Source of the DNA: Chloroflexi bacterium bin125
GTDB taxonomy: Bacteria; Chloroflexota; Dehalococcoidia; Bin125
Direction: 5' to 3'
NCBI GenBank assembly: GCA_002239025.1
Contig: MPNM01000009.1
Span: forward strand, 1-64,000
Length of the DNA: 64,000 nucleotides
In this document: in pieces, positions 33,829 to 39,129 of the stretch
How the letters are laid out: every line of letters begins with the position of its first letter
Numbering within the stretch: position 1 is the stretch's first letter
The notes under the pieces: model-generated
Told to the model about the DNA's origin: nothing
Seen by the model: the letters and a program-made list of their open reading frames with translations, nothing else
Databases searched by the model: none
Program-made: the position numbers and the translations under genes

Positions 33829-34584
33829 TTATTTGTTGGCTGCGATGAAGGACTGGATTCGTTGCCAGGCGTCGTTGCAGGCGTCCACGTGTTCATCGTA
33901 GGAGCGGTCGAAGAAGCTGTGCGGGGCGCCTTCGTAGGTGACGATCTCGCGGCTGACGCCGGCGGCCTGGAGTGCAGCGTCCCATTCGGCGACAGCGTCG
34001 GCTGGGATCATCTCGTCAGCTCCGCCAAACAGACCGAGGATGGGACACTCGATCTCGGCGACTGTGCCAGAGGGAGCGGGCCCGTGGAGGCCATCAACGG
34101 TTGGTCGACCGTAGAATCCGATCGCGCCAGCGAGTCCGTGTCCGGACGACGCCTGGAGCCAGCTATTGCTGCCGCCGAAGCAGAAGCCAACAGTAAACAC
34201 CTTGCGCTCGGGGACATTGGCGCGCAGGACGGCGACAGCGGTTGCGGTGTCAGCCACGATGCCGTCGGGCGTCGTCGCATGGACGTGCGGCATGAAATCG
34301 AAGTCCGCGTCGCGTTTGGAGACGCCGGCGGTGCGGCCGAAATAGTCGATCGCGACGGCGTCGATGCCGATCTCGGCGAACCGAATGGCCAGCTCCTCGT
34401 AGAAACGGAAGAGTCCGCGCACGTCGGGCAGGATCACCATCCCTGGACCTGTGGGCGATTCTGCCTTGGCGTGGAAGGCCGCAAACTGGACGCCGTCGGA
34501 CGCGGTCAGGGTCAGGTCTTCAACGTAGACGGCTGCTCCGGCGATTGGAGTGATGGCGGGCAGGGCATGATAGCGGTGACACAT
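33829..34584 (-). CDS. Dienelactone hydrolase family protein, copy 1
   Basis: 251 residues, alpha/beta hydrolase of the DLH family. The catalytic triad is visible: Cys in GFCFGGSNSW (about 133), Asp in GGADE (about 190) and His in GAPHSFFDRS (about 222). The family opens dienelactones in chlorocatechol breakdown, but many members act on other esters or lactones. It is about 87% identical by hand alignment to the next gene upstream. ATG at 34584. Confidence 0.88.
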   Translation of the reverse strand: MCHRYHALPAITPIAGAAVYVEDLTLTASDGVQFAAFHAKAESPTGPGMVILPDVRGLFRFYEELAIRFAEIGIDAVAIDYFGRTAGVSKRDADFDFMPHVHATTPDGIVADTATAVAVLRANVPERKVFTVGFCFGGSNSWLQASSGHGLAGAIGFYGRPTVDGLHGPAPSGTVAEIECPILGLFGGADEMIPADAVAEWDAALQAAGVSREIVTYEGAPHSFFDRSYDEHVDACNDAWQRIQSFIAANK

Positions 34585-34636: not shown

Positions 34637-35395
34637 TTAGCTGTTGGCTGCGATGAAGGCCTGGATTCGCTGCCAGGCGTCGTTGCAGGCGTCGACGTGC
34701 TTGTCGTAGCTGCGGTCGAAGAAGCTGTGCGGCGCTCCTTCGTAGGTCACGATCTCGCGGCTGACTCCGCCCGCCTCGAGCGCGGCGTCCCACTCGGCGA
34801 CGGCTTCGGCAGGGATGCTCTCATCTGCTCCACCCATCAGACCGAGGATGGCGCCTTCGATCTCTCCCACTGTGGCCGAGGGAGCTGGTCCACCGTTGAG
34901 CCCTTCGGCTGTAGGACGTCCATAGAAGCCGATGGCGCCGGCGAGGCCGTGTCCGGCGGAGGCCTGCAGCCAGCTATTGCTGCCGCCGAAGCAGAAGCCG
35001 ACAGTGAAGACGGCGCGGTCGGCGTCATTGGCACGCAGGACGGCGACTGCGGCAGCGGTATCTGCTGCGATGCCCTCGGGCGTGGTGCCGCGCACGTGCG
35101 GCCAGAAGTCAAACTCGGCGTCGCGCTTGCCGACGCCGGCGGTGCGGCCGAAATAGTCGATCGCGACGGCGTCGATGCCGATCTCGGCGAACCGAATGGC
35201 CAGCTCTTCGTAGAACCGGAACAGTCCGCGCACGTCGGGCAGGATCACCATGCCCGGACCAGTCGGTGATTCGGCGCGGGCGTGGAAGGCGGCGAATTGG
35301 ACGCCGTCGGATGCGGTCAGGGTCAGATCTTCGACGTCGACGGACGCTCCAGCGATCGGGGTGATGGCCGGCAGCGCTTCGTATCGGTGGCACAT
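34637..35395 (-). CDS. Dienelactone hydrolase family protein, copy 2
   Basis: 252 residues with the same Cys-Asp-His triad as copy 1 and only one single-residue indel (an extra Gly before PAPS). I count about 32 substitutions, mostly conservative, grouped at surface segments such as VRGTTPEG and NDADRAV. The 52-bp gap and shared direction indicate a tandem duplication, probably one transcript. ATG at 35395. Confidence 0.88.
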   Translation of the reverse strand: MCHRYEALPAITPIAGASVDVEDLTLTASDGVQFAAFHARAESPTGPGMVILPDVRGLFRFYEELAIRFAEIGIDAVAIDYFGRTAGVGKRDAEFDFWPHVRGTTPEGIAADTAAAVAVLRANDADRAVFTVGFCFGGSNSWLQASAGHGLAGAIGFYGRPTAEGLNGGPAPSATVGEIEGAILGLMGGADESIPAEAVAEWDAALEAGGVSREIVTYEGAPHSFFDRSYDKHVDACNDAWQRIQAFIAANS

Positions 35396-35471: not shown

Positions 35472-36710
35472 TTAGATGATTCCGGCCTCGCGGAGCTCTG
35501 CTCTGGCGGCCTCGTCGAGGCCCAGCAGTTCGCCATACACATCATCGTCGTGCTCGCCGCGATTAGGAATCGGACCGCTGAGTGCGGCTGGTGTACGAGC
35601 CATTTTCCAGGGAGTCCCGGTGTAGAGCGCGCCGCCTCGTACTGGAGCCGCCGCTTCGGCTGTCAGATTGATCTGGGCATTGGATAGGGCGCTGTAGTCC
35701 TCATCGATCAACAGCGCCGTCGGGTCCATCATCGGGAAGGCCGGCACGCCCAGCCCCTGGAGTTGGATGCTCAGTTCCATCGCGTCGTGATTTCGCGTCC
35801 AGTTAGAGACTGCACTGTCGAGCGCATCTTGACCATTGAGGCGACCGCTCATCGTTGACCACTCAGGCTGCTCGAGCTGTGGGGCGACGCTACACAACGC
35901 CGACCACTCAGCGTCGCTGCGCACGACGATGGCGAGCCAGGCGTCGTCGCCAAGGGCCGGGTAGACGCCGTGCGGCGCCATGGCCGTTCCGCGATTGCCC
36001 CGCGGCCCGGCATCTCGTTGGTTGAGCAGCCAGTCCATCAACGGCGCGGCCGCGCGCTGCAGCGTCGCCTCTCCCTGGGCGAGGTCGATGAACTGACCTC
36101 GGCCGCTGCGCTCGCGATACTCAAGCGCCGCCAACAATGCCACGAACGCGTGTCCGGCGGCGGTCGGGTCGAGGTCGGCAGTGTCCTCGCGGGGCTGGGG
36201 ATCGTCGGGGTAGCCAAGCAACGACTTGAGGCCATACAGCGCCGCCAGTGACGGTCCATAGGTGACCAGGTTGCGCCAGGGACCTTCGGTCGCGCCGGAT
36301 GCGGACAGCGCGACCATGATGATCCGCGGATTGACCTCAGCGAGCACGTCGTAAGACAGCCCCAGCGAGGGCATCACGCGGGGCGAGAAGTTCTCCAGGA
36401 CGACATCCGATTGCTCAATCAGGCGCAGATACAACTCGCGCCCACGCGGATCGCCAAGATGAATCGCTATCGACTTCTTGCCTCGGTCCAGACCATGAAA
36501 GGCACGCGGATCGTCGACGGACGTTGAACCACGGTCACCACCGATCGAGCCGACCGGAGCTCGTTGTCCACCAATCGAAACCCCCGACATCCGGTGGGGA
36601 GCGCCCACCTTGATCACCTCAGCGCCCAGGTCGGCCAGGAACAGTCCCAGCAGAGGCCCAGCCCAAACATGACCATGGTCAAGCACACGGATTCCAGTGA
36701 GGGGCGGCAT
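35472..36710 (-). CDS. Class III CoA transferase (CaiB/BaiF family)
   Basis: 412 residues. The N-terminus MPPLTGIRVLDHG and GADLGAEVIKV-type segment (LADLGAEVIKVG, about 26-37) are typical. The catalytic Asp is in the ADLDPTAAGHAFVALL segment (about residue 180). The family moves CoA between carboxylic acids such as formate/oxalate, carnitine derivatives, bile acids or succinate. The specific acid is unknown. ATG at 36710. It lies 10 bp before the GIY-YIG gene stop, but is functionally unrelated to that cassette. Confidence 0.9.
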   Translation of the reverse strand: MPPLTGIRVLDHGHVWAGPLLGLFLADLGAEVIKVGAPHRMSGVSIGGQRAPVGSIGGDRGSTSVDDPRAFHGLDRGKKSIAIHLGDPRGRELYLRLIEQSDVVLENFSPRVMPSLGLSYDVLAEVNPRIIMVALSASGATEGPWRNLVTYGPSLAALYGLKSLLGYPDDPQPREDTADLDPTAAGHAFVALLAALEYRERSGRGQFIDLAQGEATLQRAAAPLMDWLLNQRDAGPRGNRGTAMAPHGVYPALGDDAWLAIVVRSDAEWSALCSVAPQLEQPEWSTMSGRLNGQDALDSAVSNWTRNHDAMELSIQLQGLGVPAFPMMDPTALLIDEDYSALSNAQINLTAEAAAPVRGGALYTGTPWKMARTPAALSGPIPNRGEHDDDVYGELLGLDEAARAELREAGII

Positions 36711-36720
36711 GGGTAGATTG

Positions 36721-37398
36721 CTACTCCACTTCTCGAAGGCGAGATTCGGACAGGTGCAGGAGGCGCTTGGCTTGAACGACCAGGGTGGCGCGGAGACCCG
36801 GCTTCACTTGACGGCGGCTGATGACATCAGCCAATCGCGCGATCGTCGCCGCTCGCTGCGCGATCCGGATGTCTGGATGCACACGCCGGCGGTAGATGTC
36901 CGGCGGAACGATGCGACGGCGGAACGACGAGGGCAGTTCCATCATTTCCGCTTCATCAGGCGGCTTCTCATTCAAGACCGCGCCGAATTGCGAGGCGTCC
37001 AGGACGCTTTGAAAGAGTGAGTACTCCGCAGAGTTGAGCCGCTCCTTGGCCCATTCCCGGACCTTGGCCTTCTGCTCGTTCTGCTCTGCCAACTGCCAGG
37101 CATCGTGCAGATCCCAAAACGGCCACATCTCGACGTCGGCTACTTCAAACGGATCGAGGACGTTCATCGCCACCGCGTCGGTGCGTTGGTTGGTCAAGTG
37201 ACGACGGATCCTGACACGTAGCTGCTCTGTTGTTTGCCCAACGTAGATCGGCTCATCGTCGTAATCAAAGAAGGCATAGACACCGTACTTCGCATCCCCG
37301 ACCTTTCTCCCATTTGCCGGATCGATGACATCCAGGGCCTTGATCAGCTCGCGCAGAATGGCGGCAACCTCGTCGGGCGGTCCGCGGCGTTTGACCAT
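36721..37398 (-). CDS. GIY-YIG nuclease-domain protein
   Basis: 225 residues. The GIY-YIG core lies at about residues 38-75: KYGVYAFFDYDDEPIYVG, then Arg in RVRIRRHL. The remaining 150 residues are charged and unfamiliar, with many Arg. It starts at ATG 37398, 2 bp after the Vsr stop, or at an overlapping GTG at 37407. Its place behind a cytosine methyltransferase and Vsr suggests it is the restriction nuclease of that unit, since some type II enzymes (for example Eco29kI, Hpy188I) use this fold. Full-length similarity to those was not evident. Confidence 0.75.
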   Translation of the reverse strand: MVKRRGPPDEVAAILRELIKALDVIDPANGRKVGDAKYGVYAFFDYDDEPIYVGQTTEQLRVRIRRHLTNQRTDAVAMNVLDPFEVADVEMWPFWDLHDAWQLAEQNEQKAKVREWAKERLNSAEYSLFQSVLDASQFGAVLNEKPPDEAEMMELPSSFRRRIVPPDIYRRRVHPDIRIAQRAATIARLADVISRRQVKPGLRATLVVQAKRLLHLSESRLREVE

Positions 37399-37400
37399 CG

Positions 37401-37862
37401 TCAGCACCTGAACATTTCGACGCCGGGTGGGGGATACATCTCGAATCGGCCTTCAACGGCATCGCCAATGAAGTCCGCGATCGAGGCGACGTCTCCATGC
37501 ACGGCCCGATCGGAGACGCGGATCACTGTCCAACCGAGGTCGCGCAGCTCTCCGTTGACGCGGCGGTCTCGGTTCACGTTGCGAGCGATCTTGTGGCGCC
37601 AGTACTCGCTCATCTCGGCGTAGCGTTCGGCGGTGTGTTTCTTGCCGTGCCAGAATTCTCCATCGACGAAGATGGCGAGTTTACGCCCGACCATAGCGAT
37701 GTCTGGACGGCCAGGGGCTTTCGCGTAATCGACCCGATATCGGAGACCGCGCCGATGCAGTTCCTTGCGCAAGGCGAGTTCGGGCTTGGTGTCCTTACGC
37801 CTGATTCTGCGCATCGTCTCGGATCGGGCTTCTGGACTGAGCGGATCACGGCGCACTGCCAC
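37401..37862 (-). CDS. vsr: Very short patch repair endonuclease
   Basis: 153 residues. Nicks 5' of the T in T:G mismatches created by deamination of 5-methylcytosine. Motifs: TKPELALRKELHRRGLRYR, GRPDIAMVGRKLAIFVDGEFWHG (catalytic Asp and the FWH His), then NVNRDRRVNGELRDLGWTV. The start is GTG at 37862, 4 bp after the methyltransferase stop and with GGGAGG upstream; the longer open frame overlaps the methyltransferase. Its presence predicts that the neighbouring enzyme makes 5-methylcytosine. Confidence 0.9.
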   Translation of the reverse strand: MAVRRDPLSPEARSETMRRIRRKDTKPELALRKELHRRGLRYRVDYAKAPGRPDIAMVGRKLAIFVDGEFWHGKKHTAERYAEMSEYWRHKIARNVNRDRRVNGELRDLGWTVIRVSDRAVHGDVASIADFIGDAVEGRFEMYPPPGVEMFRC

Positions 37863-37866
37863 GTCT

Positions 37867-39033
37867 TCAACCTCCCGCGGCGACAGCGTCGAAGGGATCG
37901 TTGGCGAAACGAGCGCGGATCGGTTCTGCCTGAGAAAACTCCTGGAGCAGGAAGCCGAATGCCGCGTCGACCAGCCAACGGACCGCCGGTACGCAAACGG
38001 CATCGCCGAAACCGCTTTGGGCTTGTCGCCGACCCGCGGCGATGGGGAAATCGTCCGCTCCCTGGAGGCGAGCGTACTCGCGGCCGGTCAGCGGTCGGAT
38101 ACGCGGCCTACCGAGCCGGCAGTCCACCAGGAACTGGACACTGCTACCACCATTGGCAGTGCGGAGACATCCGGCAATGGTGTCGCTTCGAAGCTCTCCC
38201 ACTGTCCTTCCCTGCCTCACCCGGCGGTACATCGTGGCGACACCATCTCGCTTACCAAGCAAGAGCTCGCCAACACGGGCTGCGTGGCGTCCATGCATTC
38301 CATTCAGCAACGTTCGTACCCGATCTTCCGGCCACCAAGACTGATCGTGTTCGGAAACACGGTCGAGCACGTGCACGAGGCGCCGGTTGGACGCGTGAGG
38401 AGGTTCGGGGAGGCCAATCTCAACCAAGGGGAGCTCGCGGTGCGTTGCCTGGAACTTGCGGATGGCTCCAGTTCGCAGACGGGTTATCTCTCCAGTCGGC
38501 GGTAGCGCATGATTGAGCAAGTCCGTGCGGACGGCAACCACAAACAGTCTTGGTCGGCTCTGCGGCGTGAACCACTTTGCGTCCACTACCACAACGTCAA
38601 TGAGGTAGCCAAGTTCGCCGATGCAAACGCACACCTCCTCCAGATCGCGCCCGCCGTGCGACGTGACGAATCCGGTGACGTTTTCCAGCAGCAAGGCCTT
38701 TGGTGGCGTTCCTTCCTTGACCAGTCCAGCGGCAAGCTCAAGAAACGGCCAGACAGCACTCGAATGTTCGCCTGCAAGTCCACGACGATTTCCAGCGAGC
38801 GATAGGTCAATGCACGGGAATGAGGCCGTCAACAGATCAAGATCGGCGGGCAATTCGGAGCGTTTGAGGTTGTTGATGTCGTCGATCAGCAAATGCTCGG
38901 GGCCAAAGCGCTCGGAATACATCCTGGCCTTTTCTGCTGAAATGTCATTCGCGAAGGCGCAGTCCCAGCCAAGCGGCTCAATGGCCTCTCGGATTAACCC
39001 GATCCCTGAGAAGAACTCCGCGAAGCGCGCCAT
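37867..39033 (-). CDS. DNA (cytosine-5-)-methyltransferase
   Basis: 388 residues. C5-methyltransferase motifs in order: I FAEFFSGIGL (4-13), IV SFPCIDLSLAG with the catalytic Cys, VI LLLENVTG, VIII FTPQSRPRLF, a variable target-recognition region, IX RPLTGREYARLQG, X GDAVCVP. Start at ATG 39033 with AGGGGAC upstream; an earlier in-frame ATG at 39066 is possible. First gene of the methyltransferase, Vsr, GIY-YIG run. The target sequence cannot be read from the protein. Confidence 0.92.
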   Translation of the reverse strand: MARFAEFFSGIGLIREAIEPLGWDCAFANDISAEKARMYSERFGPEHLLIDDINNLKRSELPADLDLLTASFPCIDLSLAGNRRGLAGEHSSAVWPFLELAAGLVKEGTPPKALLLENVTGFVTSHGGRDLEEVCVCIGELGYLIDVVVVDAKWFTPQSRPRLFVVAVRTDLLNHALPPTGEITRLRTGAIRKFQATHRELPLVEIGLPEPPHASNRRLVHVLDRVSEHDQSWWPEDRVRTLLNGMHGRHAARVGELLLGKRDGVATMYRRVRQGRTVGELRSDTIAGCLRTANGGSSVQFLVDCRLGRPRIRPLTGREYARLQGADDFPIAAGRRQAQSGFGDAVCVPAVRWLVDAAFGFLLQEFSQAEPIRARFANDPFDAVAAGG

Positions 39034-39129
39034 TATGTCCCCTGTGGCAGATGATAGACGTGACATTGATTAGCACGCCCATTCTAACACCGAGAGATAT
39101 CCTTCCAGTGGATAGAGGAGTCCGACACC

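What the first reader, a model, noticed from the sequence alone, without database searches (positions are those of the whole stretch)
36721..39033. Compact methyltransferase, Vsr, GIY-YIG cassette
The three genes are joined by gaps of 4 and 2 bp. Vsr predicts a 5-methylcytosine product. The GIY-YIG protein has no close resemblance, by eye, to known GIY-YIG restriction enzymes and has a 150-residue unexplained C-terminus, so it could be a restriction enzyme with a new specificity or a repair nuclease working with Vsr.
Basis: partly seen in the sequence, partly recalled or inferred. Interest (0 to 1): 0.5.

Follow-up and report, generated by a model that had tools for sequence, protein, structure and literature searches.

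The report
GIY-YIG restriction–modification cassette with Vsr
Three adjoining bacterial genes look like a restriction–modification defence (a DNA methylase, a repair nuclease for the mutations it causes, and a DNA-cutting enzyme of an uncommon fold) whose cutting enzyme belongs to a widespread family that these searches did not find described.

Summary
The cassette is real: on the minus strand a C5-cytosine methyltransferase, a Vsr nuclease and a GIY-YIG nuclease lie 4 and 2 bp apart. I read it as a Type II restriction–modification system whose restriction enzyme is the GIY-YIG protein. Its six active-site positions are invariant in 82 aligned sequences. Of 57 fetched relatives with full flanks, 56 have the same methyltransferase type beside it and 43 have Vsr, so the nuclease travels with the methyltransferase. 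In a congener the same chromosomal site keeps methyltransferase and Vsr, but an unrelated 174-aa PD-(D/E)XK-like gene replaces GIY-YIG; in two or three others the site holds a GmrSD-type defence gene. The methyltransferase type also pairs with two other restriction-enzyme families. The protein does not match the Eco29kI family (Pfam), and its methyltransferase's target domain differs from that of Eco29kI-type systems (CCGCGG). A rhizobial relative with the same target-domain core lies in a genome whose GGCGCC sites score about 98% methylated, so GGCGCC is my best guess; corrected site-avoidance counts do not support it. No activity has been shown, and a few loci fit poorly. Ordinary in kind; new as a nuclease family and for its swapped partners.

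The parts
37867..39033 (-). C5-cytosine DNA methyltransferase (388 aa), M
   Evidence: PF00145 2.2e-40, TIGR00675 4.3e-40, PADLOC MTase_II 5.1e-95; PC, ENV and RxR motif residues conserved in 92-93 of 93 aligned MTases
38134..38262 (-). Core of the methyltransferase target-recognition domain (residues about 258-300; R271, R273, E280, R282, D284, G288, L290-R291-T292, G295-G296-S297, Q300)
   Evidence: Positions unchanged in 93 of 93 aligned MTases (D284 in 92; C289 and S298 vary) across four kinds of nuclease partner; which bases they read is inference
37401..37862 (-). Vsr-type mismatch endonuclease (153 aa, GTG start), V
   Evidence: TIGR00632 1.5e-36; phmmer to E. coli Vsr structure 1cw0 1.1e-18; E. 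coli D51/H69/D97 correspond to D54/H72/D99
36721..37398 (-). GIY-YIG nuclease (225 aa, ATG start), predicted restriction endonuclease, R
   Evidence: PF01541 1.8e-6; Y41, Y52, R63, H67, E125, N143 invariant in 82 sequences; AlphaFold2 mean pLDDT 91.6, best Foldseek match UvrC GIY-YIG domain
36724..36948 (-). C-terminal region of the GIY-YIG protein (residues about 151-225): strand 159-162, helices 166-172, 175-195 and 200-224, Arg-rich; proposed DNA-reading or dimer part
   Evidence: H174, D176, R178, R182, R203, R212, R220 invariant in 82 sequences; secondary structure; function is inference
39034..39129 (.). 96-bp gap between the divergent hydrolase gene (+) and the methyltransferase gene (-); likely promoter region
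   Evidence: Gene coordinates; promoter function is inference

Best explanation
A Type II restriction–modification system in the order M-V-R. The C5 methyltransferase marks a short site in host DNA. The GIY-YIG protein cuts the same site in incoming unmethylated DNA; its likely chemistry is that of other GIY-YIG nucleases (metal bound by E125, a Tyr as general base, R63/H67/N143 assisting), probably as a dimer, with the Arg-rich C-terminal helices reading the site. Vsr nicks T:G mismatches left when 5-methylcytosine deaminates at the methylated site. Shown here: gene identities, intact active-site residues, linkage, and replacement of the nuclease by an unrelated gene at the same locus. Inferred: cleavage, dimerisation, C-terminal role, Vsr action. 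Weakly inferred: the site is GGCGCC or a close variant (my probability about 0.45).
For: Active-site residues invariant in 82 sequences, with the R-x3-H spacing of R.Eco29kI, whose Y49, R104, H108, E142 and N154 mutants keep 0 to about 10% of activity (PMC1952068, passages). The same MTase type in 56 of 57 full-flank loci; in 66 of 77 loci the longest frames of MTase and GIY-YIG overlap or are at most 22 bp apart. Mobile distribution: 384 loci in genome contigs, 80 fetched; 15 plasmid records, 9 covering 80% of the query; 7 viral contigs. Same-site replacement: congener G013 keeps M (76%) and V (81%) but has a 174-aa protein with an EVK motif in place of GIY-YIG; that protein was found in 3 of 245 class genomes, all 3 beside this M and V in the same order. 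The site behaves as a defence slot: among 15 genomes of the genus it holds M-V-GIY in 4, M-V-174aa in 1, a GmrSD_N-type gene in 2 with a nucleotide-similar gene in a third, none of the cassette genes in 5; 2 not decided. Same MTase core paired with two PADLOC REase_II families. GGCGCC: the rhizobial relative carries the core in a genome with about 98% GGCGCC methylation, assigned to it through REBASE similarity (PMC8709438, passages).
Against: I found no activity, methylation or phage data for any GIY-YIG member. No palindrome is avoided specifically by the three carriers sampled; GGCGCC O/E is 0.82, 0.76, 0.84 in them, 0.92 in G011 (GIY-YIG with another MTase subtype) and 0.66-1.07 in four genomes treated as non-carriers, one of which (G013) was later seen to have the MTase. 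One full-flank locus (L082) has GIY-YIG and Vsr but only a different C5 MTase with its own neighbour. Two loci show an intact GIY-YIG beside a broken MTase: interrupted (L036), and frameshifted on a low-coverage contig (L072); unexpected for an active restriction enzyme unless these are assembly errors or another MTase protects. The rhizobial paper called 4mC at GGCGCC, not 5mC, with average C methylation calls of 38-46% elsewhere (so noisy), and the GIY-YIG copy on that plasmid is broken. Our MTase is only 34% identical to the rhizobial one over aligned positions.
Confidence: 0.88

Rival explanations
1. The GIY-YIG protein is a repair nuclease that works with Vsr on deaminated 5mC, for example cutting the second strand or excising the nicked patch.
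For: Vsr lies within the fetched stretch in 43 of 57 full-flank loci, and the closest structural match is the UvrC repair nuclease domain. L082 has GIY-YIG and Vsr without the family MTase.
Against: 14 of 57 full-flank loci lack Vsr in the stretch while 56 of 57 have the family MTase. At one site GIY-YIG is replaced by an unrelated PD-(D/E)XK-like protein with Vsr retained. Two other nuclease partners of this MTase type are REase_II families in PADLOC.
Confidence: 0.05
2. A variant of the best explanation: a divergent Eco29kI-type system that recognises CCGCGG.
For: Eco29kI-type systems are the best-known GIY-YIG restriction systems, and some of 310 predicted m5C systems for CCGCGG carry Vsr elements (PMC10855626, passages). 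CCGCGG is sparse in the window (22 seen, 49 expected) and lowest per Mb in G000 among 15 genomes.
Against: No match to Pfam RE_Eco29kI at E<=1. The GIY-YIG family HMM found no ORF in 12 Eco29kI-family loci at E<=10, and the four MTases beside them whose core could be compared carry a different target-domain core (AKTLKAG-HGVPGGEN); their site is taken from the family, not tested. After Markov correction CCGCGG O/E is 0.62-0.75 in carriers and 0.66-0.72 in the others.
Confidence: 0.05
3. The cassette is no longer restricting: the MTase and Vsr are kept as an epigenetic or orphan pair and the nuclease is inactive or modification-dependent.
For: Broken GIY-YIG copies beside intact MTases exist (L013, L016); intact GIY-YIG beside damaged MTase in L036 and L072; no specific avoidance of any palindrome; in Caulobacter a Vsr-like protein stabilises a solitary MTase (PMC12907096, passages).
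Against: In this window the open frame and all active-site residues are intact, and the GIY-YIG genes at this site diverge (57-61% in five of six pairs) while keeping them.
Confidence: 0.1

Closest known systems
Eco29kI / Cfr42I-type GIY-YIG restriction systems (CCGCGG; Pfam RE_Eco29kI PF09517)
   Same: Type II layout, a C5 MTase beside a GIY-YIG nuclease, sometimes with Vsr (PMC10855626); same active-site set including R-x3-H
   Different: No sequence-family match; different methyltransferase target-domain core; longer spacing between active-site His and Glu (58 here, 34 in Eco29kI by the published numbering)
R.Hpy188I (TCNGA), GIY-YIG restriction enzyme
   Same: GIY-YIG fold used for restriction (PMC4081073, passages)
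   Different: Not found by sequence search of PDB chains; reported to have an unusual active site (title only)
UvrC N-terminal GIY-YIG domain (1yd6, 1ycz)
   Same: Best structural match: Foldseek prob 0.99, E 0.025; VIA-align Z 8.9, 93 residues, rmsd 2.5, model residues 11-146
   Different: Repair enzyme without an MTase partner (recalled); the match does not cover the Arg-rich C-terminal helices
GGCGCC methyltransferases of Rhizobium RCAM1026 / M.CcrNAIV type with the PADLOC PDLC03501 REase
   Same: Same MTase target-domain core and in several loci a Vsr gene
   Different: The nuclease partner is an unrelated 285-aa protein; in some plasmid or phage-collection loci both nucleases are present
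DUF4928 (PF16280, PADLOC PDLC03543 REase_II) plasmid systems
   Same: Same MTase type with the conserved core
   Different: Unrelated nuclease; no Vsr annotated in the two regions read

Membership tests
Type II restriction–modification system | DNA methyltransferase gene with intact motifs | tested here: met
   PF00145, TIGR00675; motif residues conserved
Type II restriction–modification system | Separate linked nuclease gene with intact active site | tested here: met
   GIY-YIG residues invariant in 82 sequences; family MTase in 56 of 57 full-flank loci
Type II restriction–modification system | Nuclease and methyltransferase act on the same short DNA sequence | not testable with these tools
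   Needs methylome and cleavage assay; same-site nuclease replacement is indirect support
Type II restriction–modification system | Avoidance of the site in host DNA (frequent, not defining) | tested here: inconclusive
   No carrier-specific avoidance among 4- and 6-base palindromes in 3 carriers against 4 others, one of which has the MTase
GIY-YIG nuclease superfamily | PF01541 match and Tyr, Tyr, Arg, Glu, Asn active site | tested here: met
Eco29kI restriction-enzyme family | Match to Pfam RE_Eco29kI | tested here: not met
   Not listed at E<=1; family HMM does not find Eco29kI-type ORFs in 12 loci at E<=10
Eco29kI restriction-enzyme family | Companion methyltransferase with the target domain of Eco29kI-type systems | tested here: not met
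   Different core from the four MTases compared
Vsr mismatch endonucleases | TIGR00632 match and catalytic Asp/His residues | tested here: met
   the E. coli H64 position is Asp here (D67), as reported for VsrA and V.NgoAXIII (PMC12907096, passages)

The most novel reading that the evidence does not exclude
A methyltransferase–Vsr chassis with one fixed recognition core accepts interchangeable restriction nucleases of at least four unrelated families (this GIY-YIG family, a 174-aa EVK protein, the 285-aa PDLC03501 family, DUF4928). All would cut the same GGCGCC-like site, and this GIY-YIG family would be a new and widespread GIY-YIG restriction enzyme family with a specificity not known for that fold.
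Probability: 0.45. Interest if true: 0.6.

Novelty: new variant of a known kind. Interest (0 to 1): 0.45.

Why it matters
The passages I saw of a 2014 review name three GIY-YIG restriction enzymes (PMC4081073), and a 2024 paper adds R.DraR1 of the Eco29kI kind (PMC10855626). A family with 384 detected loci over many phyla, matched in Pfam only as generic GIY-YIG and by no curated NCBIfam or clear PADLOC model, would add a sizeable, directly testable set of enzymes. The same-site swap of a GIY-YIG nuclease for a PD-(D/E)XK-like one offers a natural experiment: two unrelated folds that should read the same DNA site because one methyltransferase must protect against both. It also yields an unannotated 174-aa candidate restriction enzyme.

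Tried and rejected
Site avoidance to find the target: pooled 80 loci and three carriers against four others gave no specific signal. Raw GGCGCC per Mb (computed, genome sizes as printed) is 819 (G000), 829 (G014), 901 (G006), 950 (G003) in carriers of M-V-GIY, 1181 in G011 (other MTase subtype with GIY-YIG) and 946-1139 in the other ten, one of which (G013, 1123) has this MTase without GIY-YIG. So the four carriers are the lowest or near-lowest in raw density, but the corrected O/E does not differ and my G000 sample has lower G+C. The low raw CCGCGG count in G000 also vanished after correction.

Structure prediction without an alignment was useless (pLDDT 41). Phmmer hits of the GIY-YIG protein to ribosomal proteins in PDB had E of 0.075 or worse and were ignored, as was one topoisomerase hit of the profile at E 0.57. 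For the 174-aa protein the best PDB hits were designed TIM barrels, ignored; Pfam, PADLOC and PHROGs gave nothing. C-terminal matches are generic long helices. Eco29kI is not among the 50 VIA-align rows shown and stands at Foldseek rank 10 (E 0.41); I use neither as evidence. The N-TL/C-TL motif scheme for reading specificity (PMC2413257, parts 1-3 of 4 read) was considered, but by its own account it does not carry over to six-base sites. The Azospirillum GGCGCCGG motif (PMC4706337, passages) was m4C with no gene assigned and not used.

A first conservation count of the target domain dropped 13 of 86 rows by a filter on the motif itself; it is replaced with all 93 rows. The 16 positions listed there were picked; the 93 rows include one identical pair (L004/L060), close pairs such as L050/L054, and locus-edge fragments. 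A2 left out 7 of the 80 loci (L033, L037, L054, L055, L073, L080, L081), partial, split or near-duplicate. One search counted a non-family MTase at L082; searches corrected this to 56 of 57.

Literature: nine searches in open-licence PMC papers; of their hits I saw listings (for example 25 of 79, 20 of 528, 8 of 22) and passages of eight papers besides PMC2413257. In what I saw, this GIY-YIG family is not described as a restriction enzyme; the 2006 GIY-YIG survey (PMC1564403, 12 of 21 places shown) does not mention Vsr. REBASE was not available and may well list members as putative: RCAM1026 Table 4 lists two unnamed 'restriction enzyme' genes beside a chromosomal GGCGCC MTase that I could not inspect.

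Full report
What is there. The three genes lie on the minus strand: methyltransferase 39033..37867, Vsr 37862..37401, GIY-YIG 37398..36721, with gaps of 4 and 2 bp. Profile searches confirm the identities. The genome is a Dehalococcoidia bin: the closest named match, 89% identical in the GIY-YIG protein, is 'Dehalococcoidia bacterium' JAJDYG010000040.1, whose contig length equals that of congener G014's contig.

The nuclease family. Of 61 genomes searched, the own genome and four others of its genus have a relative over most of the length; a sixth hit was weak. A pattern-and-tblastn scan of genome contigs gave 384 relatives, of which the best 80 were fetched; titles name Chloroflexi, Acidobacteria, Verrucomicrobia, Planctomycetota, Myxococcales, Acidimicrobiia and others. 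Plasmids: 15 records with a match, 9 covering at least 80% of the query. Phage collection: 3 records, 1 covering at least 80%. Viral contigs: 7 loci, with the MTase in 6 and Vsr in 3 within the stretches held. In 82 aligned sequences (A2, the window included) Y41, Y52, R63, R66, H67, E125 and N143 are invariant, together with a C-terminal set H174, D176, R178, R182, R203, R212, R220. By pattern and spacing (R-x3-H) I map Y41, Y52, R63, H67, E125, N143 to Y49, Y76, R104, H108, E142, N154 of R.Eco29kI (PMC1952068, passages); the mapping is mine, not a tool's alignment. The model built from 74 sequences has mean pLDDT 91.6. Its best solved matches are UvrC GIY-YIG domains.

Linkage. Of the 80 loci, 57 have at least 3 kb before and 1.5 kb after the GIY-YIG gene. 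All 57 have a C5 MTase; in 56 it is of the window's family (HMM score 406 bits or more), while L082 has another type. Vsr is found in 43 of the 57. Orders over the 77 loci with an MTase: V-M-G 28, M-G 22, M-G-V 17, M-V-G 4 (one of them L033, where V and M are fused in one frame), others 6. Three loci have no MTase match by HMM: L037 and L091 begin at a contig end (L091 shows the last 40 residues of an MTase there); L048 ends 1.3 kb after the gene at a contig end but has 5.6 kb before it without one, and another contig of the same assembly (L057) has a complete cassette.

Same-site comparison in the genus. The cassette stands between a CoA-transferase and a hydrolase gene. Among 15 genomes: M-V-GIY here in G000, G003, G006, G014; M-V-174aa in G013; a gene of 556-558 aa with Pfam GmrSD_N in G004 and G008, and a related frame of 562 aa in G012 (64-66% nucleotide identity over about 700 bp); no cassette gene in G010 (93 bp apart) and G001, G002, G005, G011 (462-503 bp); G009 is cut by its contig end, and in G007 the orthologous hydrolase was not found. 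G011 has its GIY-YIG cassette elsewhere. The GmrSD_N gene is a known kind of restriction gene, so this site is used repeatedly for defence genes.

The replaced nuclease. In G013 M (76%) and V (81%) are kept, but GIY-YIG is replaced by a 174-aa open frame with an EVKS motif. It has no Pfam, PADLOC or PHROGs match, but is 39% identical over 134 residues (E 3.7e-28) to a 184-aa protein beside a same-type MTase on a Photobacterium plasmid. In 245 genomes of the class it occurs in 3, each time beside this MTase and Vsr in the same order. Its PD-(D/E)XK assignment rests on the motif and is inference.

Independent turnover of the nuclease gene. G000 and G014 share 89% identity in GIY-YIG but 77% in the MTase; the other five GIY-YIG pairs are 57-61% while all ten MTase pairs are 74-81%. 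By the hydrolase gene G014 is nearer to G003, G006 and G013 (91-92%) than to G000 (80%). Exchange of the nuclease gene alone would give this; differing selection is not excluded.

Other partners of the same MTase type. A 285-aa protein (PADLOC PDLC03501) accompanies it in L008, L014, L016 and L218, and in two pieces with an annotated IS256 transposase between them in L009. DUF4928 (PDLC03543) accompanies it in L219 and L220. L008 and L014 carry both the 285-aa protein and an intact GIY-YIG frame; in L016 the GIY-YIG gene is a remnant. In 93 aligned MTases, covering all four partner types, 13 of 16 positions examined in the target domain never change, D284 changes once, and C289 and S298 vary. 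Constancy of these residues argues for one recognition mode; it does not name the bases.

Which site. L016 is plasmid pRL11 of Rhizobium RCAM1026. In that strain GGCGCC scores about 98% methylated by nanopore against average C calls of 38-46%, and two MTases, one on pRL11, were assigned to it through REBASE similarity (about 52% to M.CcrNAIV) (PMC8709438, passages). The software called 4mC at position 3, whereas the gene family is 5mC; I take this as a miscall, which is inference. Matching the paper's genes 005751, 005752 and 005755 to M, the 285-aa gene and Vsr in L016 is mine, by order. Against CCGCGG: MTases beside Eco29kI-family nucleases in the same phylum (family in 20 of 301 genomes, 18 over the cut-off; 12 loci read, four MTases compared) have another target-domain core. 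Avoidance tests were inconclusive.

Results against my reading. L082 lacks the family MTase in 12.6 kb. L036 and L072 have an intact nuclease frame beside a damaged MTase gene, which should be lethal if the damage is real and the enzyme active, unless another MTase protects. No sampled carrier specifically avoids a palindrome. I found no experiment on any GIY-YIG member.

Verdict. A predicted Type II restriction–modification system with Vsr: known in kind (Eco29kI-type systems with V elements; PMC10855626, passages), with a nuclease family that has no model of its own in the libraries searched here, and with an interchangeable nuclease slot.

Noticed in passing
L236:6047-6568 (minus strand), G013 contig 5: Unannotated 174-aa EVK-motif protein in place of the GIY-YIG gene; relatives in G107, G243 and a Photobacterium plasmid, in these four loci always beside the same MTase type.
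   Followed up: partly
L237:4146-5813, L238:8766-10439, and G012 (L239): At the cassette's site three congeners carry a 556-562 aa gene, GmrSD_N by Pfam in the two scanned (also HEC-05-like in PADLOC). In G012 the first 52 codons of the CoA-transferase are present twice, as if duplicated by the insertion.
   Followed up: partly
L033:535-2199: Vsr and methyltransferase fused in one 554-aa frame (Vsr about residues 15-157, MTase 170-539).
   Followed up: partly
L008, L014 (both nucleases intact), L009, L016 (one damaged): Loci with two candidate restriction nucleases, the 285-aa PDLC03501 protein and GIY-YIG, for one methyltransferase.
   Followed up: partly
L240, L241, L243, L244, between the CoA-transferase and hydrolase genes; also after the nuclease gene in G013 (L236): In four congeners without the cassette a 462-503 bp stretch with repeated CCTGAAA-like words and an imperfect inverted repeat (GCACGATCTCCAG / CTGGAGATCGTGC-like) fills the site; a similar-looking stretch follows the nuclease gene in G013.
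   Followed up: no
window 33829-34584 and 34637-35395 (minus): Tandem duplicated genes of about 252 aa, dienelactone-hydrolase-like by eye.
   Followed up: no
window 36700-36721: The CoA-transferase gene starts 10 bp after the nuclease gene, so in carriers it may be transcribed from the restriction operon; in G010 it is divergent from the hydrolase over 93 bp.
   Followed up: no
L082:5258-5989: A 243-aa frame after a different C5 methyltransferase, possibly its restriction enzyme, directly before the GIY-YIG and Vsr genes.
   Followed up: no
window and samples of 8 genomes of the genus: CAGCTG is under-represented in these genomes (O/E 0.11-0.81) irrespective of the cassette.
   Followed up: no
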